Below, one piece after another: positions 16,793-32,868 of a stretch of 64,000 nucleotides of DNA. The translations under genes and the position numbers were made by a program. The notes beneath the pieces were generated by a model that did no database searches, had not been told where the DNA came from, and saw only the letters and a list, made by a program, of their open reading frames with translations. Origin of the DNA: Lachnospiraceae bacterium. GTDB lineage: Bacteria; Bacillota; Clostridia; Lachnospirales; Lachnospiraceae. Location of the stretch: assembly GCA_022483465.1 (NCBI GenBank), contig JAKVNF010000002.1, forward strand, positions 248,001-312,000, read 5' to 3'. Position 1 is the stretch's first letter; each line of letters begins with the position of its first letter.

Positions 16793-16929
16793 ATGAGTCA
16801 AGAACGCGTGCTGAATCTGATCTTTACCTCCGACACCCACGGCCACCTCTTCCCGGTCAACTACGGGAACGGGGACAAAAAGGCAGGGGGACTCCTTACC
16901 CTTGCAGAGCGCATCCAGAAGATCCCTAA
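16793..16929 (+). pseudogene. 5'-nucleotidase/UshA-family phosphoesterase, N-terminal part
   Basis: Encodes MSQERVLNLIFTSDTHGHLF then PVNYGNGDKKAGGLLTLAER and IQKIPK, where an ISAzo13 element interrupts it (TAA duplicated at 16927-16929 and 20033-20035). SDTHGH holds the first metal ligands (D-x-H). There is no signal peptide, so the enzyme was cytoplasmic, unlike UshA. Removing the insertion gives a 520-aa uninterrupted protein with the part at 20033-21461. Confidence 0.9.
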
Positions 16930-17359
16930 GAAACTGCGCGCAATTAACTCATGCATATTCTACCGGCAATAATTAGCTGGAGCGATGACATAATTCCAGT
17001 CTCCCCGAAACGTATTACGAATGATGTTCACTTGTCCCAGCTCCTCATCTGTGACCTTGATCCCAGTCTTGTACGTACCGGAATCAAGCCCGCATTTGAT
17101 CACAAGACCTTTTTCTGTTGTTGTATTCGCTATAAGGTTTATGATGATCGCCAGTGTTTCCAACGGCCTGCCGCGCCAGTTTTTGCTGATCTGGCTGAAC
17201 ATGCGGTGCTCAATCTTGTTCCATTTTGATGTTCCTGGTGGAAAGTGGGAAACCTCTATCGGAATACCTATCTCGTTTACGAGCTTTTGCAATTCGACCT
17301 TAAACAGGCGATTACGGCTTCCGTTGCTGCCGCCACCGTCTGCTGTGATATAAAGCTTA
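16930..17359 (-). repeat. 430-bp ISAzo13 3' segment, tandem copy 1 (transposase C-terminal fragment)
   Basis: Contains the last 131 codons of the transposase (KLYITADGGGSNGSRN to APANYCR, stop at 16960), cut at TTA (17357-17359) before the next copy begins. Includes the second D and the E of the catalytic triad but not the first D, so it cannot be active. Identical, as far as I compared, to 17360-17789 and to 17790-18219. Confidence 0.92.
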
Positions 17360-17789
17360 GAAACTGCGCGCAATTAACTCATGCATATTCTACCGGCAAT
17401 AATTAGCTGGAGCGATGACATAATTCCAGTCTCCCCGAAACGTATTACGAATGATGTTCACTTGTCCCAGCTCCTCATCTGTGACCTTGATCCCAGTCTT
17501 GTACGTACCGGAATCAAGCCCGCATTTGATCACAAGACCTTTTTCTGTTGTTGTATTCGCTATAAGGTTTATGATGATCGCCAGTGTTTCCAACGGCCTG
17601 CCGCGCCAGTTTTTGCTGATCTGGCTGAACATGCGGTGCTCAATCTTGTTCCATTTTGATGTTCCTGGTGGAAAGTGGGAAACCTCTATCGGAATACCTA
17701 TCTCGTTTACGAGCTTTTGCAATTCGACCTTAAACAGGCGATTACGGCTTCCGTTGCTGCCGCCACCGTCTGCTGTGATATAAAGCTTA
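17360..17789 (-). repeat. 430-bp ISAzo13 3' segment, tandem copy 2
   Basis: Exact tandem repeat of the preceding segment; transposase fragment stops at 17390. It begins with the terminal repeat GAAACTGCGCG at 17360, directly after the TTA of copy 1, and ends at TTA 17787-17789, directly before the complete copy. An assembly artefact of repeated sequence is possible and should be excluded with long reads. Confidence 0.9.
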
Positions 17790-19124
17790 GAAACTGCGCG
17801 CAATTAACTCATGCATATTCTACCGGCAATAATTAGCTGGAGCGATGACATAATTCCAGTCTCCCCGAAACGTATTACGAATGATGTTCACTTGTCCCAG
17901 CTCCTCATCTGTGACCTTGATCCCAGTCTTGTACGTACCGGAATCAAGCCCGCATTTGATCACAAGACCTTTTTCTGTTGTTGTATTCGCTATAAGGTTT
18001 ATGATGATCGCCAGTGTTTCCAACGGCCTGCCGCGCCAGTTTTTGCTGATCTGGCTGAACATGCGGTGCTCAATCTTGTTCCATTTTGATGTTCCTGGTG
18101 GAAAGTGGGAAACCTCTATCGGAATACCTATCTCGTTTACGAGCTTTTGCAATTCGACCTTAAACAGGCGATTACGGCTTCCGTTGCTGCCGCCACCGTC
18201 TGCTGTGATATAAAGCTTAGTTGCATTTGGATACCGCGTTTTGCCCATTTCCTCCCACCACATACGTATGGAGGCTACCGCAAATTCTGCAGTATCTGAT
18301 GTGATACCAACATTTACGAAACCTTCGTTTTGTGAGAGATCATAAACACCATATGGAATTGCCTTGCCTTTCTCAGGCAGCGGAAAATCGTGATCCAATA
18401 CCTGTGTAGGGCTGCTTTTTGGAGCATATTCGGCACCATTGTTCTTGAAATTGCCAATGTTTTCCTTCTTCTTACAGTCGATGGAAATCACTGGTTCATC
18501 GTTAGTCATGTAGGCCAGGCAGGTCTCATTGATATGTCTGAATTGGGCATCCCGATCCGGCGATGGCTCACCAACCTGCTTGTTTTTCTGATTCTGTTGC
18601 AGGCTGTACCCATTTACGGCCAGTAACTCGCGGACCGAAGTAGGGCCGATCTGATATCCCTGCTCTGTGAGCTCCTGAGCCAGATGCCGTGTACTTTTGG
18701 ATGTCCAGAGAAGAGGAGTTTCGGGATTGCCATAGCTGTCGTTCTCTACCAGCTTCAGCAGAGCCTCTTCAATACCGGGTTGAGATTCCGTAATTGGTTT
18801 TCTTCCGGCACCCTTTTTACGGATGCGTCCGGAATCCTCCTGCTGGATTTCACGATCAGCCTCTGGATTCCCGGAATGAATTTCCCTCAATCCAGCGGCT
18901 ATCGTATTCCTGTTCGCACCTGATAACTGGCTGACTTTTGAAATGCCACCGCGTCCGAGGGACTCGGCTTCATAGGCAAGATACTGCCTCCTCTGCTTCT
19001 CATTAAGGAGGGACATGACACCGGTTATTCGCTTTTTAAGGATATCTTCATCGCTCATGCACCCATGATACGAAATGGGAGATGAAATCGCAATATATTG
19101 CTTAATTTATTTACGCGCAGTTCC
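17790..19124 (-). mobile_element. Complete ISAzo13-family element, 1335 bp
   Basis: Terminal inverted repeats GAAACTGCGCGCAATTAACT (17790) and, on the other strand, GGAACTGCGCGTAAATAAAT (from 19124), 16 of 20 positions identical. Flanked by TTA at 17787-17789 and 19125-19127. Carries one intact transposase gene and the 12-bp palindrome GCAATATATTGC near its 5' end. Confidence 0.92.
17820..19058 (-). CDS. ISAzo13-family transposase (intact)
   Basis: 412 aa. Recognised by the family pattern ISIDCKKKENIGNF, DHDFPLPEKGKAIPYGVYDL, ITADGGGSNGSRNRLFK and HFPPGTSKWNKIEHRMFS; likely catalytic residues D194, D287 and E330. N-terminal helix-turn-helix region (GGISKVSQLSGANRNTIAAG, about 37-57) should bind the termini. 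The ATG lies 67 bp inside the 5' terminus; the ribosome binding site is weak. It is the only uninterrupted copy among the elements of this type in the window, so it could have supplied the transposase for the others. Confidence 0.92.
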   Translation of the reverse strand: MSDEDILKKRITGVMSLLNEKQRRQYLAYEAESLGRGGISKVSQLSGANRNTIAAGLREIHSGNPEADREIQQEDSGRIRKKGAGRKPITESQPGIEEALLKLVENDSYGNPETPLLWTSKSTRHLAQELTEQGYQIGPTSVRELLAVNGYSLQQNQKNKQVGEPSPDRDAQFRHINETCLAYMTNDEPVISIDCKKKENIGNFKNNGAEYAPKSSPTQVLDHDFPLPEKGKAIPYGVYDLSQNEGFVNVGITSDTAEFAVASIRMWWEEMGKTRYPNATKLYITADGGGSNGSRNRLFKVELQKLVNEIGIPIEVSHFPPGTSKWNKIEHRMFSQISKNWRGRPLETLAIIINLIANTTTEKGLVIKCGLDSGTYKTGIKVTDEELGQVNIIRNTFRGDWNYVIAPANYCR

Positions 19125-19127
19125 TTA

Positions 19128-19966
19128 GTTGCATTTGGATACCGCGTTTTGCCCATTTCCTCCCACCACATACGTATGGAGGCTACCGCAAATTCTGCAG
19201 TATCTGATGTGATACCAACATTTACGAAACCTTCGTTTTGTGAGAGATCATAAACACCATATGGAATTGCCTTGCCTTTCTCAGGCAGCGGAAAATCGTG
19301 ATCCAATACCTGTGTAGGGCTGCTTTTTGGAGCATATTCGGCACCATTGTTCTTGAAATTGCCAATGTTTTCCTTCTTCTTACAGTCGATGGAAATCACT
19401 GGTTCATCGTTAGTCATGTAGGCCAGGCAGGTCTCATTGATATGTCTGAATTGGGCATCCCGATCCGGCGATGGCTCACCAACCTGCTTGTTTTTCTGAT
19501 TCTGTTGCAGGCTGTACCCATTTACGGCCAGTAACTCGCGGACCGAAGTAGGGCCGATCTGATATCCCTGCTCTGTGAGCTCCTGAGCCAGATGCCGTGT
19601 ACTTTTGGATGTCCAGAGAAGAGGAGTTTCGGGATTGCCATAGCTGTCGTTCTCTACCAGCTTCAGCAGAGCCTCTTCAATACCGGGTTGAGATTCCGTA
19701 ATTGGTTTTCTTCCGGCACCCTTTTTACGGATGCGTCCGGAATCCTCCTGCTGGATTTCACGATCAGCCTCTGGATTCCCGGAATGAATTTCCCTCAATC
19801 CAGCGGCTATCGTATTCCTGTTCGCACCTGATAACTGGCTGACTTTTGAAATGCCACCGCGTCCGAGGGACTCGGCTTCATAGGCAAGATACTGCCTCCT
19901 CTGCTTCTCATTAAGGAGGGACATGACACCGGTTATTCGCTTTTTAAGGATATCTTCATCGCTCAT
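19128..19966 (-). pseudogene. ISAzo13 transposase, N-terminal fragment of the outer copy
   Basis: First 280 codons (MSDEDILKKRITGV... to YPNAT), interrupted where the nested copy inserted. The open frame continues 23 codons into the terminus of the nested copy (ELRVNKLSNILRF...). Retains the HTH and first catalytic D only. One base in the terminal palindrome (GCAATATATTGA at 20000-20011) differs from the other copies, marking this as a distinct copy. Confidence 0.9.
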
Positions 19967-20032
19967 GCACCCATGATACGAAATGGGAGATGAAATCGCA
20001 ATATATTGATTAATTTATTTACGCGCAGTTCC

Positions 20033-21461
20033 TAAGGATCCTCTGGTGCCAGGAGAGGCCCTGGAGAACACCCTAATCCTCGACGGCGGGGACTCTCTGC
20101 AGGGAACGCCCCTCACCACCTGGTACCTCTCCCACAGGGGGGCGGTCCCGTTCCACCCGGTGGCAGAGGCCTTCAAGGCCTGCGGCCTTTCCTTCTATAC
20201 CCTGGGAAACCACGACTTCAACTTCGGGTATGATGCCCTGAAGGATTACCTTCTCTCGATGAAAGCGGTGTGCGTTGCGGCAAACGTAAAGGATAAGCGC
20301 TCCGAGCTCCCCATCCGATCCTATGTGATCCACACGATGCCGGACGGCCTTAGGGTCGGCATCACCGGCGCCGTCACCGACTGGGTGAACGTCTGGGAGC
20401 AGAAGGAGAACATGACAAGCCTTGTCGTCACGGAGCCGGAGGCGGCCCTTCGGGAAGCGCTGGAGAAGATGAGAGGCCAGTGCGATCTCACGATCGGGAT
20501 CTACCACGGGGGCTTTGAGGAGGACTTTTCCACCGGAAAGAAGCTCTCCAATACCACGGAGAACATCGCCTGCAAAATCATGCGGGACCTTCCCTTCGAC
20601 ATCCTCCTCACCGGCCACCAGCACATGGCGGTCCCCTCCTTCGAGCTTGCCGGCACCCACGCCTGCCAGCCGGTGGACCAGTGCACCTCCTTCTGCTTCC
20701 TACAGGCAAGGGTCACCGATACCGGCGTCTTTGTGACCTCGAAAATCGTCCCCCTGGGGACGGAAGTGGACGAAAAGACGGCAGAGAAGCTCTCCCCCGT
20801 CGAGGCGGCAACCCAGAAGTGGCTCGATGAGCCCGTCGGGGAGCTGGTGACCCCGGTCCCGAAGGAGGAGAAGCTCTCTGCCGCCCTCCACGGGAGCCGG
20901 GTGGCGGCCCTTTTCAACGCGGTGCAGCTATCCCGCACCGGGGCAGACTTTTCCTGCACCTCTCTGGGGAATACGCCCCTTGGCCTTGCAAAAGAGATCT
21001 CCATGCGGGACATCACGAGGATCTATCCCTTTGCCAACACCGTCATGGTGCTGAAGGTAACGAAAGATACGATCCGCGCCTCCCTGGAGCGGGCCGCCTC
21101 CTACCTGGTTTTGCAGGACGGAAAGCCCGCCATCTCCAAGGCCTTCCTGGAGCCCAAAGTCGAGCACTACAACTACGACTTCTGGGCGGGACTCGACTAC
21201 GCTTTCGACCTTCGAAAGCCCGTCGGGGAGCGGGTGGTGCGCCTTCGCACCCTGGACGGCAAGGAGCTCTCGAAAGATCGCACCTACACCCTGGTGACCA
21301 GCAACTACCGGGCGACGGGAACGGGCGGCTACCCGGAAATTGGAAAGAGCCCTGTCATCCAGAGCACCACCGACGAGATGCCGGATCTTCTCGCGGATTA
21401 CCTCCGGAAAAACAGCCCGGTTCGCATCCCCGAGAACGCAAAATTTGCCGTCATCTGGTGA
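20033..21461 (+). pseudogene. 5'-nucleotidase/UshA-family phosphoesterase, main C-terminal part
   Basis: Continues in frame as DPLVPGEALENTLILDGGDS and carries the remaining metallophosphatase motifs: GGDS (Asp bridging ligand), LGNHDFNFG, YHGG and TGHQHMA, then the 5'-nucleotidase C-terminal domain (about 320-490) with GADFSCTSLGNTPLGL and TSNYRATGTGGYPE (substrate stacking region). Lacks the start, so no functional enzyme is expected unless translation restarts. The reading frame is otherwise undamaged, which means the insertion is recent. Position behind phnDCEE suggests it handled the imported phosphorus compound. Confidence 0.9.
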
Positions 21462-23007: not shown

Positions 23008-23087
23008 TACAAAAAAAGTTAGGAACTGCGCGTAAATAAATTAAGCAATATATTGCGATTTCATCTCCCATTTCGTATCATGGGTGC

Positions 23088-23929
23088 ATGAGCGATGAAG
23101 ATATCCTTAAAAAGCGAATAACCGGTGTCATGTCCCTCCTTAATGAGAAGCAGAGGAGGCAGTATCTTGCCTATGAAGCCGAGTCCCTCGGACGCGGTGG
23201 CATTTCAAAAGTCAGCCAGTTATCAGGTGCGAACAGGAATACGATAGCCGCTGGATTGAGGGAAATTCATTCCGGGAATCCAGAGGCTGATCGTGAAATC
23301 CAGCAGGAGGATTCCGGACGCATCCGTAAAAAGGGTGCCGGAAGAAAACCAATTACGGAATCTCAACCCGGTATTGAAGAGGCTCTGCTGAAGCTGGTAG
23401 AGAACGACAGCTATGGCAATCCCGAAACTCCTCTTCTCTGGACATCCAAAAGTACACGGCATCTGGCTCAGGAGCTCACAGAGCAGGGATATCAGATCGG
23501 CCCTACTTCGGTCCGCGAGTTACTGGCCGTAAATGGGTACAGCCTGCAACAGAATCAGAAAAACAAGCAGGTTGGTGAGCCATCGCCGGATCGGGATGCC
23601 CAATTCAGACATATCAATGAGACCTGCCTGGCCTACATGACTAACGATGAACCAGTGATTTCCATCGACTGTAAGAAGAAGGAAAACATTGGCAATTTCA
23701 AGAACAATGGTGCCGAATATGCTCCAAAAAGCAGCCCTACACAGGTATTGGATCACGATTTTCCGCTGCCTGAGAAAGGCAAGGCAATTTCATATGGTGT
23801 TTATGATCTCTCACAAAACGAAGGTTTCGTAAATGTTGGTATCACATCAGATACTGCAGAATTTGCGGTAGCCTCCATACGTATGTGGTGGGAGGAAATG
23901 GGCAAAACGCGGTATCCAAATGCAACTAA
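23088..23929 (+). pseudogene. ISAzo13 transposase of element A, N-terminal part
   Basis: Codons 1-280 (MSDEDILKK... to YPNAT), broken by element B at TAA (23927-23929), six residues before the second catalytic Asp. The open frame runs on into B as KELTHNKLISWHVINRLL. Joined to 28004-28400 it rebuilds 412 codons without a frameshift. Confidence 0.92.
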
Positions 23930-24018
23930 GGAATTGACACATAATAAATTAATCAGTTGGCACGTAATAAATCGACTGCTATAATAGCCTTATATCTCGG
24001 ATGGGAGGCAGTCGATTC

Positions 24019-24039
24019 ATGGCTTCACCAATATATGAT
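24019..24039 (+). pseudogene. Start of the element B transposase gene
   Basis: ATG with GGGAGG 10 nt upstream encodes MASPIYD, then element C interrupts (ATGAT duplicated at 24035-24039 and 26588-26592). In frame with SDHVDHILSNISVILPYV at 26593. A promoter is likely just upstream (TTGACA at 23934-23939; TATAAT at 23979-23984). Confidence 0.8.
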
Positions 24040-26587
24040 CTCTAATTCCCGGGTATGTTGATAACTTTACACTTTTCAACTTTCCATCAACCGCGGGCTT
24101 TTTGGAACTTCGCCCGCGGAAAATAATGGGCTAAATATTACGGATCCATGGTAATCGGCTCCTGTTTTTGGAACTCAATGATAACTTCGCTTGTTGCTCA
24201 GGCCCCGTCTCGCTTTGTCCCGGAAAGATCTGCTTCCCTGGCCTCACGCTCAAGTGTCTTCTTGTTCTTGGATCCCGGTGGCCTGCCTGGCTTTCTCTTG
24301 ACGTGTACGATACCTGCAGCTGCCTCGGCTGCCTCTCGCTCGAGGGTCTTCTTGTTCTTGGATCCAGGCGGTCTGCCCCGGCCTCTCTTTTTCGTTATTC
24401 CGTCTGAAGAGTCGGCTGTCCGCGGTACAGAAGTTGCATCCTGCTTTCCTTTGTCCGGAGCAGGTATTGCACCATTGCCATCTGTGATGACATCTGTTGG
24501 CTTTTCACCTGAGACGCCGGCTTCTGGTACTGTCAACGGATCGCTGCTATTCGTGTCGAAAGAAGCAACGGATTTTCCACTGGCATCATCCTCAGCAATC
24601 CTGAGCCCTGCCTTTTCCGCCGCTTTTCTCACGCGAATCAGCTCGTTTGCCTTGCGCTTTTTCTCGATTTCATCATCCGAGAGATAAGCTTTGCGTGCAA
24701 ATGCGTACTTCCTTGTGAGTTTGTTTTTCTCACCCTCTTTGAAGACATAGGTGAGCGCATTGTCCTTCCGATTGATCTTGAAAGGGCTGGCAATCCGGAA
24801 GGCATCGTAGAAATCTCTGGCCTGTCGGATCGGAATCTCGGGGAGAATGACCTCATCAAAAACCTCCGCCTTCTGACCACGCAGTTCCAGAAACAGGCTG
24901 GAGGGAGATTCCCTGAAAACCTGCCCAACTGGGATCTGTTCAAGGAAGCTCTTCCCGCTCTTGTCGGTCATGGCATCCTCGGAAGGTTCATCCAGAGCTT
25001 TGGCAAGTGCCGGGGATACCTCCACATACCTGCTGTCCACCATACCGAGACGATTCTTGATGACGATAACAAGAAACGTGGCAATGAACGCAATCAGCAT
25101 GTGTCCTTTCAGGGTCTCCATGTTGTGCTGCCGTACCGGAAGGAACTTTGCATAGTTCTTGCCAAAGTCAAAGTACTGCTCGATATCCTGGCGGACATAG
25201 TATTCCGGAAGGACCTCCTCTACAGGAAGGTCTCTTGTAGTGACGATGGCAAAAACACCAAGCTGCTCAGAAATCTCGAGGATCTGGTCACAGGTCATCT
25301 TCCTGGCAGACTTCGTCTTCATCAGCCGTGTGTACTTGAAGGAGCTGCTGTCGCGGTCTCTGCAGAGATAAACAAACCCTGTGACGTCCTTCCCGGTTTC
25401 CTGATCGACGGCGATCTTCGTCTCGACCTTGACGATATAGAGAATGCGGTCCCTGTACCGAATCGCATTTGTGTCATCTTTAAGCTCCGCGGCATGCTCA
25501 TCCAGGATCTGCTTGTACAGATCATAGGTGGGATTCAGTCGGGTCATGAAGTCAATGCCAGAGAGAACAAGTTTCTCCATGGTAGAGGGACAGCAGTATC
25601 CTGCATCACCAATGGCATAAGAAACATCGCAGTGATACTGTTTCGCCAGCTCAATGATGCGCTGTGTCGTGGAAACATCCACGATGTTGCCCGGGATGAT
25701 CTCATAGAAGATCGGCAGTCCGGTAGACCGCTGAACAAGGGCAATCATCCGGAACTCGATATTGATATCGCCCTCATGGTTGCTGACACGGGTGACCGGG
25801 AGATCACACTTGTTTGGCATTCCGGTGCTGTCGATCAGGATAGAAACCTCCTGATCCGTTGAATTCAGCAGATACTTGATATGCGCAAGAAGGAAGTCCC
25901 TGCGCTGGCTGTCGTCGCCGAGCTTTGCCAGCATATCACTGATCCGCTGGCTGTAAATGTTGGCCTTCGGGAACAGGTACGATGCATAGTTCTGTCGATA
26001 CCACCTGTCGGCATTCACGTTCGCCTTTCCCTCAAGGATGTAATAGAAAAGGAGGGCGTACAGAGTGTCCCGATTCACATATTTGAGAGAGTCAAGGACT
26101 TCGTTATAGCCGATCGAATCGATCAGTGTTTTCAGGAAGTAGGAGTCGCCGAAGTCCACAAGCACATGCCGCTCTTTTCGCGCTCCGTCAGGGTTCTGTT
26201 CCGCGTTCGGGACATCCTTTGCCTCAAGTGCAGTGATGCTCTGATCATCCGGATTGAAATGGAAGTAACCTTCATCCCGTTTCCAGAAGATAAGGCGGTC
26301 CTTGTCGATCACCTTTCCGAGGTACTTCTGCCCCTGCTTCCTGGGGCCCTGATCCGTCTGAATCGTAGAGCCTGGCCATACAGCAACAAGTGTGCCGGAT
26401 GAGTTATTGCGATAAGAAATGCTAGGCATTTATTCGTCCTCAAGTTATTGTTTGTGATAACTTATTGTACGATATTTTGCCCGGCTTCGCAATAGTAGTA
26501 GCCAAGAAACACCGTGCTTTAGGCACTTTTTTGAAAATATTGTGCAGAAATATTCCCGAGAGTTATCAAGTTACCCGGGAAATAGAG
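24040..26587 (-). mobile_element. IS1634/IS4-type element C, 2548 bp (innermost layer)
   Basis: Termini CTCTAATTCCCGGGTATGTT (24040) and on the other strand CTCTATTTCCCGGGTAACTT (from 26587), continuing as GATAACT; 24 of 27 positions match. Flanked by 5-bp ATGAT duplications. A 29-bp inverted-repeat-like hairpin CCGCGGGC ... GCCCGCGG at 24091-24118 lies inside the left end and may shield the transposase gene from outside transcription. Carries one large transposase gene. Confidence 0.9.
24198..26429 (-). CDS. IS1634-family (IS4 superfamily) transposase with two C-terminal AT-hooks
   Basis: 743 aa, long for the family. Catalytic core: LIDSTGMPN (first D), YAIGDAGYCC (second D) and the Y-R-QDIEQYFDFGKNYAKFLP signature (E of the YREK-type motif), with the insertion domain between. 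N-terminus GTLVAVWPGSTIQTDQGPRK, QKYLGKVIDKDRLIFW is like other IS1634 proteins. The last 75 residues add two copies of a basic module, KRGRGRPPGSKNKKTLEREA and KRKPGRPPGSKNKKTLEREA; GRP flanked by basic residues is the AT-hook that binds the minor groove of AT-rich DNA. Intact frame. Confidence 0.9.
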   Translation of the reverse strand: MPSISYRNNSSGTLVAVWPGSTIQTDQGPRKQGQKYLGKVIDKDRLIFWKRDEGYFHFNPDDQSITALEAKDVPNAEQNPDGARKERHVLVDFGDSYFLKTLIDSIGYNEVLDSLKYVNRDTLYALLFYYILEGKANVNADRWYRQNYASYLFPKANIYSQRISDMLAKLGDDSQRRDFLLAHIKYLLNSTDQEVSILIDSTGMPNKCDLPVTRVSNHEGDINIEFRMIALVQRSTGLPIFYEIIPGNIVDVSTTQRIIELAKQYHCDVSYAIGDAGYCCPSTMEKLVLSGIDFMTRLNPTYDLYKQILDEHAAELKDDTNAIRYRDRILYIVKVETKIAVDQETGKDVTGFVYLCRDRDSSSFKYTRLMKTKSARKMTCDQILEISEQLGVFAIVTTRDLPVEEVLPEYYVRQDIEQYFDFGKNYAKFLPVRQHNMETLKGHMLIAFIATFLVIVIKNRLGMVDSRYVEVSPALAKALDEPSEDAMTDKSGKSFLEQIPVGQVFRESPSSLFLELRGQKAEVFDEVILPEIPIRQARDFYDAFRIASPFKINRKDNALTYVFKEGEKNKLTRKYAFARKAYLSDDEIEKKRKANELIRVRKAAEKAGLRIAEDDASGKSVASFDTNSSDPLTVPEAGVSGEKPTDVITDGNGAIPAPDKGKQDATSVPRTADSSDGITKKRGRGRPPGSKNKKTLEREAAEAAAGIVHVKRKPGRPPGSKNKKTLEREAREADLSGTKRDGA

Positions 26588-26592
26588 ATGAT

Positions 26593-27972
26593 AGCGACCA
26601 CGTTGATCATATTTTATCCAATATTTCCGTCATTTTGCCCTATGTCAATGAGCGCCAGAGACGGCTGATTATAGGAGCTCTTTCTGATGCACTGGGTTAT
26701 GGCGGCAAGTCTGCGATCAGTGAAAAATGCGGTGTGGCACGTAATACCGTGCGCAAGTCCGACGAAGAGTTCAAGCTCATCATCGCTGATGCTGCCGGCG
26801 AGACTTCTACTTCCACAGAGACAGAAACCAAAAGTGACGAAGCAGAAGACTCTGGCACTACGGATACCGATAAGGATTCTGAAATGTTGCTGGAAGCAAC
26901 TCCAGAGCAGATTGTCGGGCTTTATGATGGCTCCGTCAGCCTTTCTTCACTTGAAAGCAGACAGCGCCGCGCGGGTGGTGGCAGAAAAAGTGAAGCTGCG
27001 AAAAATCCGGAACTGATTCCTGCATTGATGGAGATCCTTGACGACTACACCTATGGTAATCCGGAATCCGTGCTGCTTTATACAAACCTGAGTGATCGCA
27101 AGCTCTCAGCTATGCTCGCTGAGAAGGGCTATTCAGTTGGGAGAAATGTCGTCAACCGAATGCTGAAGGCACTCGGTTGGAGCAAACAACAGAACAAGAA
27201 GCTGAAGCAGGTCGGTAAGGAACATCCAGACAGAAATGTGCAGTTTGAATTCATCAATGCAACGGGTAAAGAGGTTTTAGCTGCAGGGAATCCCATGATT
27301 TCCATCGATTGCAAAAAGAAGGAAAACATAGGAGACTATGCCAACAAAGGCAAGGAGTACAGACATAGCAAAGATCCTCGAGCGGTGCTTGACCACGATT
27401 TTCTGGATAAGGAACTTGGTCAGGTTGCACCATATGGTGTTTACGTCGTCAACAATAATACTGGGTTTGTAAATCTTGGAACCACACATGACACCTCCCA
27501 GTTCGCAGTCGCCAGTATACGTGCCTGGTGGTACACCGTTGGCAAGAACACGTTTCCTGACGCGACCATGATTTATGTCACGTGTGATGGAGGCGGAAGC
27601 AATTCCAGCCGTGTGCGAATGTTCAAGACGGAACTGGCAAAGCTGGTTGAGGAAATCGGGATACCGATTCAGATCTCTCATTTCCCGCCGGGAACATCAA
27701 AATGGAACAAGGTGGAGCATCGCCTTTTCTCTGAGATATCAAAAAGTTGGGCAGGTAAACCGCTAATCAGTGTTGAAACTGTAGTTCAGTTGATCGGATC
27801 AACAACTACAACAACTGGTCTGAAGGTAACCTGTCAGCCTGATTACAATGACTATAAAACAGGTCTGAAGGCTTCTGAGGAAGAGTACGATAAAGTTGAT
27901 ATTGAATGGATCAATATCGGGACATCTAACAAATGGAACTACATCATTCATGGGCTGAAAAAGGACTCGTGA
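26593..27972 (+). pseudogene. ISAzo13-family transposase of element B, main part
   Basis: 460 codons from SDHVDHILSNISVILPYVNE to the stop. Family motifs ISIDCKKKENIG, DHDFLDKELGQVAPYGVYVV, VTCDGGGSNSS and HFPPGTSKWNKVEHRLFSEI are all present, with the same D, D, E pattern as element A but clearly divergent sequence and a longer acidic insert (ETSTSTETETKSDEAEDSGT). Only the first seven codons are displaced. An in-frame GTG at 26542 inside element C could restart translation and give a nearly full-length protein, so activity is not excluded. Confidence 0.85.
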
Positions 27973-28003
27973 ATTGATCAATTTAAAGGATGACACACCC
28001 TAA

Positions 28004-28400
28004 GCTTTATATCACAGCAGACGGTGGCGGCAGCAACGGAAGCCGTAATCGCCTGTTTAAGGTCGAATTGCAAAAGCTCGTAAACGAGATAGGTATTCCG
28101 ATAGAGGTTTCCCACTTTCCACCAGGAACATCAAAATGGAACAAGATTGAGCACCGCATGTTCAGCCAGATCAGCAAAAACTGGCGCGGCAGGCCGTTGG
28201 AAACACTGGCGATCATCATAAACCTTATAGCGAATACAACAACAGAAAAAGGTCTTGTGATCAAATGCGGGCTTGATTCCGGTACGTACAAGACTGGGAT
28301 CAAGGTCACAGATGAGGAGCTGGGACAAGTGAACATCATTCGTAATACGTTTCGGGGAGACTGGAATTATGTCATCGCTCCAGCTAATTATTGCCGGTAG
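28004..28400 (+). pseudogene. ISAzo13 transposase of element A, C-terminal part
   Basis: Codons 281-412 (KLYITADGGG... to APANYCR), the continuation of 23088-23929 after element B. Followed by 30 bp of terminal sequence. Confidence 0.92.
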
Positions 28401-28443
28401 AATATGCATGAGTTAATTGCGCGCAGTTTCTTAGCATCATGTG

Positions 28444-28479: not shown

Positions 28480-28787
28480 GGCGTTAGTTAAGAAACGGGT
28501 TGATAAGCGATCGCCTAGCATGAGACCACTAATCCCTCACTTTGAGCTCGAGCTGGGTACACTCCTATCCGTGCTGTGTTGCATCATGTAACAAAGCATC
28601 ACCTAGATTGCCTAAAAGCATACACCCACTTGCCGAGCATGTGACTATAAATAACAAGATAGGCATTATGCAGAGAAGAAAAGAGCTCCAAATGGGGATT
28701 CTATATCTTCATCAGACATTATCGCGTCGAGAGTTCACCATGGAGGTTGTGGTATGGAACCCGTCAACCCGGTTCTTTACTAACGCC
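28480..28787. mobile_element. 308-bp MITE, copy 1 (IS1595-related ends)
   Basis: Starts GGCGTTAGTTAAGAAACGGG and ends with the complement of GGCGTTAGTAAAGAACCGGG. Flanked by 8-bp duplications TTATGTAA (28472-28479, 28788-28795). About 96% identical to copy 2. It carries no transposase. The ends match those of the IS1595 element at 38569-39782, which could mobilise it in trans. Confidence 0.93.
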
Positions 28788-32560: not shown

Positions 32561-32868
32561 GGCGTTAGTTAAGAAACGGGTTGATAAGCGATCGCCTAGC
32601 ATGAGACCACTAATACCTCACTTTGAGCTCGAGCTGGGTACACTCCTATCCGTGCTGTGTTGCATCATGTAACAAAGCATCACCTAGATTGCCTAAACAC
32701 ATACACTCACTTGCCGAGTATGTGACTATAAATAACAAGATAGGCATTATGCGGAGAAGAAAAGAGCTCCAAATGGGGATTCTATATCTTCATCGGACAT
32801 TATCGCGTCGAGAGTTCACCATGGAGGTTGTGGTATGGAACCCATCAACCCGGTTCTTTACTAACGCC
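32561..32868. mobile_element. 308-bp MITE, copy 2
   Basis: Same orientation and length as copy 1 at 28480-28787; flanked by 8-bp duplications AATCGAAA (32553-32560 and 32869-32876). The scattered differences from copy 1 change amino acids of the only shared open frame, arguing that the interior is not coding. Confidence 0.93.

What the first reader, a model, noticed from the sequence alone, without database searches (positions are those of the whole stretch)
16930..20032. ISAzo13 element inserted into itself at one exact site, with a 430-bp tandem relic
The nucleotidase gene carries one 1335-bp element split after codon 280 of its transposase by another copy; left (430 bp) plus right (905 bp) parts sum exactly to 1335. 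A second 430-bp left part shows that another self-insertion hit the same TTA, after which one right part was lost. Insertion into its own gene destroys the outer transposase just before the second catalytic Asp, so the element may regulate its own copy number this way.
Basis: seen in the sequence. Interest (0 to 1): 0.78.

Follow-up and report, generated by a model that had tools for sequence, protein, structure and literature searches.

The report
ISAzo13 element nested in itself
A bacterial jumping gene has landed inside another copy of itself, at the spot that best matches its usual landing sequence, and one fragment was probably duplicated later; this looks like ordinary target choice, with no sign of self-control.

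Summary
A 1335-bp ISAzo13 element (ISA) in a 5'-nucleotidase gene is split 430/905 by a second ISA flanked by TTA, and an extra identical 430-bp left part lies in tandem. The cause looks mundane: 26 other family sites give the target C-TWA-G; ISA has one CTWAG, exactly here, and a matrix built without the nested sites ranks it first (share 0.29, coincidence 0.11), though ISB sites alone rank it fourth. The motif is absent from three 97%-identical copies and from the homologous stretch of 80 relatives' loci. Nine of 11 ISA copies keep a whole transposase domain, so copy-number control is unsupported. The relic is explained more simply by one unequal exchange between abutting repeats than by a second hit plus a loss. 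Nested ISAzo13 elements in two other genomes lie elsewhere in the gene.

The parts
16793..16926 (+). 5' stub of the interrupted 5'-nucleotidase-like gene
   Evidence: 45-aa open stretch read; downstream part is the frame 20046-21461, PF02872
16927..16929 (.). TAA target duplication left of the outer ISA (right copy 20033-20035)
16930..17359 (-). Left part (430 bp) of the outer ISA: 3' part of the transposase gene, ends with TTA
17360..17789 (-). Extra identical 430-bp left part in tandem (relic), ends with TTA
17790..19124 (-). Inner, complete ISA (1335 bp)
   Evidence: identical to the copy at C1:1585277-1586611
17820..19058 (-). Whole ISAzo13 transposase, 412 aa
   Evidence: PF07592 438 bits; NF033519 573.7 bits
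19125..19127 (.). TTA target duplication right of the inner ISA (left copy 17787-17789)
19128..20032 (-). Right part (905 bp) of the outer ISA with the 5' part of its transposase gene; one base differs from the inner copy
19055..19966 (-). Truncated outer transposase frame, 303 aa (281 residues as in the whole protein, then 22 read into the inner element), lacks Asp287
23022..23926 (+). Right part (905 bp) of a second ISA copy, opposite orientation, TTA on its outer side (23019-23021)
23930..28000 (+). ISB (a different ISAzo13-family element, 1518 bp, with a nested IS1634-family element = 4071 bp) inserted at the same TTA/TAA of the second ISA copy; TAA on both sides
   Evidence: an identical 4071-bp unit at C1
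26542..27972 (+). ISB transposase frame, 476 aa
   Evidence: NF033519 481 bits, PF07592 382.8 bits
24198..26429 (-). IS1634-family transposase inside ISB, 743 aa
   Evidence: NF033559 118.5 bits, cut-off 100
28001..28430 (+). Left part (430 bp) of the second ISA copy, TTA on its outer side (28431-28433)

Best explanation
An ISAzo13-family element that prefers the target C-TWA-G (3-bp TWA duplicated) inserted into a 5'-nucleotidase gene. A second copy then inserted into the best target match inside it, the element's only CTWAG. A different family member, ISB, independently hit the same site in another ISA copy that starts 3 kb further on. The first self-insertion left two 430-bp left parts abutting head to tail. 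Unequal homologous exchange or slippage between them then added a third, giving L-L-LR-R. The outer transposase is broken as a by-product; no regulatory role is needed. Shown: the anatomy, the duplications, the target consensus, and two different inserts at one site. Inferred: the order of events and the recombination step.
For: Exact ends and duplications. Of 26 non-nested ISA/ISB/ISC sites, 24 have TAA/TTA; 7 are C-TWA-G and 15 more have the C before or the G after but not both. A matrix from these ranks the nested site first of all positions in ISA (share 0.29, coincidence 0.11; first in 78% of 500 bootstraps). Only 1 of 55,388 positions in the rest of the window scores as high. ISA has 1 CTWAG, the 97% copy L007 none, ISB none. 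The three left parts are identical. A 4-copy MITE array in this genome alternates two variants (T,G,T,G) at 316-bp spacing, as expected if a dimer was duplicated by recombination. ISAzo13 elements nested in ISAzo13 elements with TWA duplications exist in two unrelated genomes.
Against: The matrix rests on 26 sites. ISB sites alone rank the site fourth (share 0.04) and ISA sites alone first with share 0.14, so ISB's hit there is poorly predicted by its own sites. The bootstrap share runs from 0.06 to 0.58, and in 22% of bootstraps the site is not first. A coincidence of 0.11 is not common. Identical left parts cannot distinguish unequal exchange from a second insertion plus loss. No reads were available to exclude assembly error in the tandem part.
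Confidence: 0.8

Rival explanations
1. Two successive self-insertions at the same TTA, then loss of one 908-bp right part by recombination.
For: The site is a demonstrated repeat target (ISA here, ISB in the second copy) and scores first in the target matrix.
Against: Needs one transposition plus one deletion where a single exchange between abutting 430-bp repeats is enough; no sequence variant marks a third insertion.
Confidence: 0.15
2. Assembly artefact: the true locus holds L-LR-R or a single element, and the tandem 430-bp copy is a misassembly.
For: The left parts are 100% identical and the genome is full of near-identical repeats.
Against: The genome is in 4 contigs of 0.83-1.62 Mb despite dozens of repeats, which suggests long reads (inference); the nested junctions carry correct duplications.
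Confidence: 0.07
3. Self-disruption is a selected copy-number brake, directly or through a truncated 303-aa transposase acting as a dominant-negative inhibitor. (Not exclusive of the histories above.)
For: The outer 5' part keeps the element's own right end and a 303-aa frame ending before Asp287; the second ISA copy leaves a similar 298-aa frame.
Against: 9 of 11 ISA copies keep a whole transposase domain; the CTWAG is absent from the homologous stretch of 80 of 80 relatives' loci (several from one genome) and from the three 97% copies.
Confidence: 0.04

Closest known systems
ISAzo13 family insertion sequences (PF07592 / NF033519)
   Same: Transposase family, terminal inverted repeats, single transposase gene, several near-identical copies.
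   Different: Nothing essential; ISA is a 1335-bp member whose best relative among the 80 loci kept is 67% identical in protein (Lachnospiraceae bacterium A4).
ISAzo13-in-ISAzo13 nests in an uncultured Vicinamibacterales (L081) and in Succinimonas amylolytica (L025), found here
   Same: One ISAzo13 element inside another with a TWA duplication (TTA and TAA, read by eye). In L081 the outer parts and the insert both match other copies of one element at 99.8-100%.
   Different: Split at about residues 246-249 (opposite orientation) and 361-367, not at 280; no tandem relic seen.
Nested insertions in Mutator-like elements of maize and rice (PMC3903597; abstract and passages seen)
   Same: Insertion into a transposase gene destroys its coding capacity and is discussed as limiting element abundance.
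   Different: Plants; in maize the inserts are mostly LTR retrotransposons; a survey, not one site.

Membership tests
ISAzo13 family | Transposase matching the family models above the curated cut-off | tested here: met
   NF033519 573.7 bits (cut-off 200), PF07592 438 bits (cut-off 26.9)
ISAzo13 family | Terminal inverted repeats | tested here: met
   GAAACTGCGCG / CGCGCAGTTCC; 27-nt arms, 78% complementary
ISAzo13 family | 3-bp target duplication (the family value is recalled, not from a call) | tested here: met
   Of 27 non-nested ISA/ISB/ISC copies with both ends found, 26 have a 3-bp duplication (24 TTA/TAA, 2 ATA) and 1 (ISB, L015) has none; both nested insertions have one
ISAzo13 family | Active DDE residues | not testable with these tools
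   Asp194, Asp287 and Glu330 are placed by motif and recall only
Copy-number self-regulation by self-insertion | Target site conserved in the element's lineage | tested here: not met
   0 of 80 relatives' loci have CTWAG in the homologous 33 nt (loci not independent); the three 97% copies differ at position 427, L007 reads TTTAG
Copy-number self-regulation by self-insertion | A large share of copies inactivated at the site | tested here: not met
   2 of 11 ISA copies are split there; 9 of 11 keep a whole transposase domain
Copy-number self-regulation by self-insertion | Effect of self-insertion on transposition rate | not testable with these tools
   needs an assay

The most novel reading that the evidence does not exclude
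ISAzo13 elements that carry one strong C-TWA-G site before the second catalytic Asp repeatedly draw their own and sister elements there, and the resulting truncated N-terminal transposase (281 own residues plus a short tail) is expressed and inhibits transposition in trans, so that self-nesting limits spread.
Probability: 0.04. Interest if true: 0.5.

Novelty: new member of a known kind. Interest (0 to 1): 0.22.

Why it matters
It is a clean, quantified example of how target preference can make a transposable element and its sister hit one base position twice, and it gives a working target rule (C-TWA-G, 3-bp duplication) for three ISAzo13-family elements of one genome. Ten papers in the library hold the family name, none in title or abstract; I read passages of one. 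It also warns that tandem relics in nested elements need not record repeated insertions.

Tried and rejected
ISA in relatives, to find other self-nested copies: of 61 other genomes of the genus 5 gave partial matches, of at most 83% identity where longer than 40 bases; of 396 other genomes sampled from the family 5 gave short or weak matches (which scored only 2 candidates per genome). No full ISA was seen outside the own genome, so there is no comparison within the lineage. PF07592 in 390 other genomes of the class: 6 matched, mostly broken or at contig ends; not informative on insertion sites. In plasmid records 179 hold a relative, the 15 listed at 48-51% identity; not examined for nesting. 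Exchange of inserts between copies was considered for the shared site: it would still need two different elements to have hit the same TTA. Landing of ISA at the edge of an ISB later lost was considered and thought less likely, as no ISB end remains at the first copy.

Left out of the target matrix: the two nested sites, the ISB copy without a duplication (L015), the truncated ISC copy (L132/L189), and ISB copies broken near an end (C3:422831, C1:634017, C2:592673). Used: 10 ISA, 11 ISB, 5 ISC.

Of 80 relatives' loci, 6 had more than one ISAzo13 stretch (L025, L036, L049, L059, L068, L081). Two are clear nests (L025, L081); the other four were not resolved.

Literature: searches (20 of 3,851 papers listed; none of those listed holds 'inserted into itself'; 20 of 94 listed; 4 listed) showed no paper on ISAzo13 self-insertion by title or abstract start; searches returned nothing. 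I saw listings only, plus passages of PMC9208149 and PMC3903597. Two of the 10 paper searches were not used.

The four stated confidences are not exclusive of each other (an assembly error may concern the tandem part alone; the brake can go with either history).

Full report
Observation. The window is C2:248001-312000 of a 4.30-Mb genome in 4 contigs. At 16930-20032 the order is L-L-LR-R: left ends at 16930, 17360 and 17790, right ends at 19124 and 20032. The three left parts (430 bp) are identical; the two right parts (905 bp) differ at one base. The complete inner element, ISA, is 1335 bp, flanked by TTA; the outer one is flanked by TAA and interrupts a 5'-nucleotidase-like gene. Its 412-aa transposase is ISAzo13 (NF033519, 573.7 bits; PF07592, 438 bits). 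The split lies at codons 280/281, before Asp287 in TADGGG.

A second ISA copy lies in the same window on the opposite strand (23022-28430, TTA on both sides). It too is split 430/905, at the very same TTA, but by another ISAzo13-family element, ISB (1518 bp, ends GGAATTGACAC and GATGACACACCC, TAA on both sides, 476-aa transposase). ISB here carries an IS1634-family element at its bp 107-111. The identical 4071-bp unit sits, with its own TAA duplication, at C1 (L179), so this compound unit has probably moved as a whole (inference). Two different inserts at one position mean two independent insertions, whatever exchange between copies followed (inference).

Why that site. I collected the sites of ISA, ISB and a third type, ISC, in this genome. 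Of 27 non-nested copies with both ends found, 26 have a 3-bp duplication; one ISB copy (L015) has none and was not used. Of the 26, 24 have TAA or TTA and 2 ATA; 7 are C-TWA-G, 15 more have the C before or the G after but not both, and 4 have neither. A symmetric 13-position matrix from these 26, without the nested sites, ranks TTA 428-430 first among all positions of ISA, with a predicted 0.29 of insertions; two insertions would coincide somewhere in ISA with probability about 0.11. With only the five central positions the site is still first, with share 0.18 and coincidence 0.06. It is first in 78% of 500 bootstraps, share 0.06-0.58. Against this reading: sites of ISB alone rank it fourth (0.04), those of ISA alone first (0.14), those of ISC alone first (0.73, from only 5 sites). 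ISA holds 32 TWA but a single CTWAG, this one, and only 1 of 55,388 positions in the rest of the window scores as high. One insertion seen both empty and filled supports the 3-bp rule: an ISB copy (L018) sits in a 308-bp MITE of which the window holds an uninterrupted copy.

No sign of regulation. ISA has 11 copies here: 9 with a whole transposase domain and 2 split at this site. One of the 9 is interrupted near its left end by other IS sequence, including an ISB and weakly IS1634-like frames, outside its domain. The three copies at 97% identity differ from CTTAG at position 427, L007 reading TTTAG, a synonymous difference; none of the three is split there. In the homologous 33 nt of the 80 relatives' loci kept (80 of 454 confirmed, several from one genome), 0 of 80 have CTWAG. 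So among what I could compare, the site is private to one sub-lineage. Both split copies leave a frame of about 300 aa lacking Asp287 (303 and 298 aa), so a dominant-negative product is conceivable but untested.

The 430-bp relic. After one self-insertion, two identical 430-bp left parts abut head to tail, an arrangement that expands or contracts by unequal exchange or slippage (established knowledge). This gives L-L-LR-R in one step. The sequence cannot separate them, since all left parts are identical. The same genome shows what looks like recombinational expansion elsewhere: four MITE copies in tandem at 316-bp spacing alternate two variants (T,G,T,G at one position), as expected if a dimer was duplicated.

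Elsewhere. Of 80 relatives' loci examined with tblastn, 6 have more than one ISAzo13 stretch. Two clearly hold an ISAzo13 element inside an ISAzo13 element: L081 (Vicinamibacterales), where insert and outer parts both match other copies of one element at 99.8-100%, in opposite orientations, TTA duplicated, near residues 246-249; and L025 (Succinimonas amylolytica), where the outer and inner elements differ (64% and 56% identical to the ISA transposase in their longest stretches), TAA duplicated, near residues 361-367 (the duplications were read by eye). The other four were not resolved. So nesting happens across the family, but not at one codon. Full ISA was not seen in 61 other genomes of the genus or in 396 others sampled from the family.

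Verdict. A real, well-read nested element. Its repeat-hit site is explained by target preference, its relic most simply by unequal exchange, and the regulatory idea is unsupported. A new member of a known kind, interest about 0.22.

Noticed in passing
window 28480-28787 and 32561-32868: A 308-bp MITE (end GGCGTTAGTTAAGAAACGGGTTGA; the first copy has an 8-bp duplication TTATGTAA); 43 places listed in this genome.
   Followed up: partly
L212:351-1606 (C1:1014650-1015905): Four copies of that MITE in perfect tandem, separated by the 8-bp duplication TAAGCAAT, two variants alternating T,G,T,G: looks like a duplicated dimer.
   Followed up: partly
window 23930-28000 and L179:843-4913: Identical 4071-bp units of ISB carrying an IS1634-family element at its bp 107-111, each with its own TAA duplication: an IS with a passenger IS appears to have moved whole.
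   Followed up: partly
L081:3369-5996: In a Vicinamibacterales genome an ISAzo13 element appears to have inserted into a near-identical copy of itself in opposite orientation with a TTA duplication.
   Followed up: partly
L025:4000-6002: In Succinimonas amylolytica an ISAzo13 element sits inside a different ISAzo13 element with a TAA duplication.
   Followed up: partly
whole genome G000: 37 PF07592 matches in this genome, while only 6 of 390 other genomes sampled from its class have any: an unusual family expansion.
   Followed up: no
L213:2600-3965: An ISA copy sits in a CTAAC beside a terminus that resembles the MITE's end, next to an IS1634-family frame (176.8 bits): it may have landed at the end of the MITE's parent element.
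   Followed up: no
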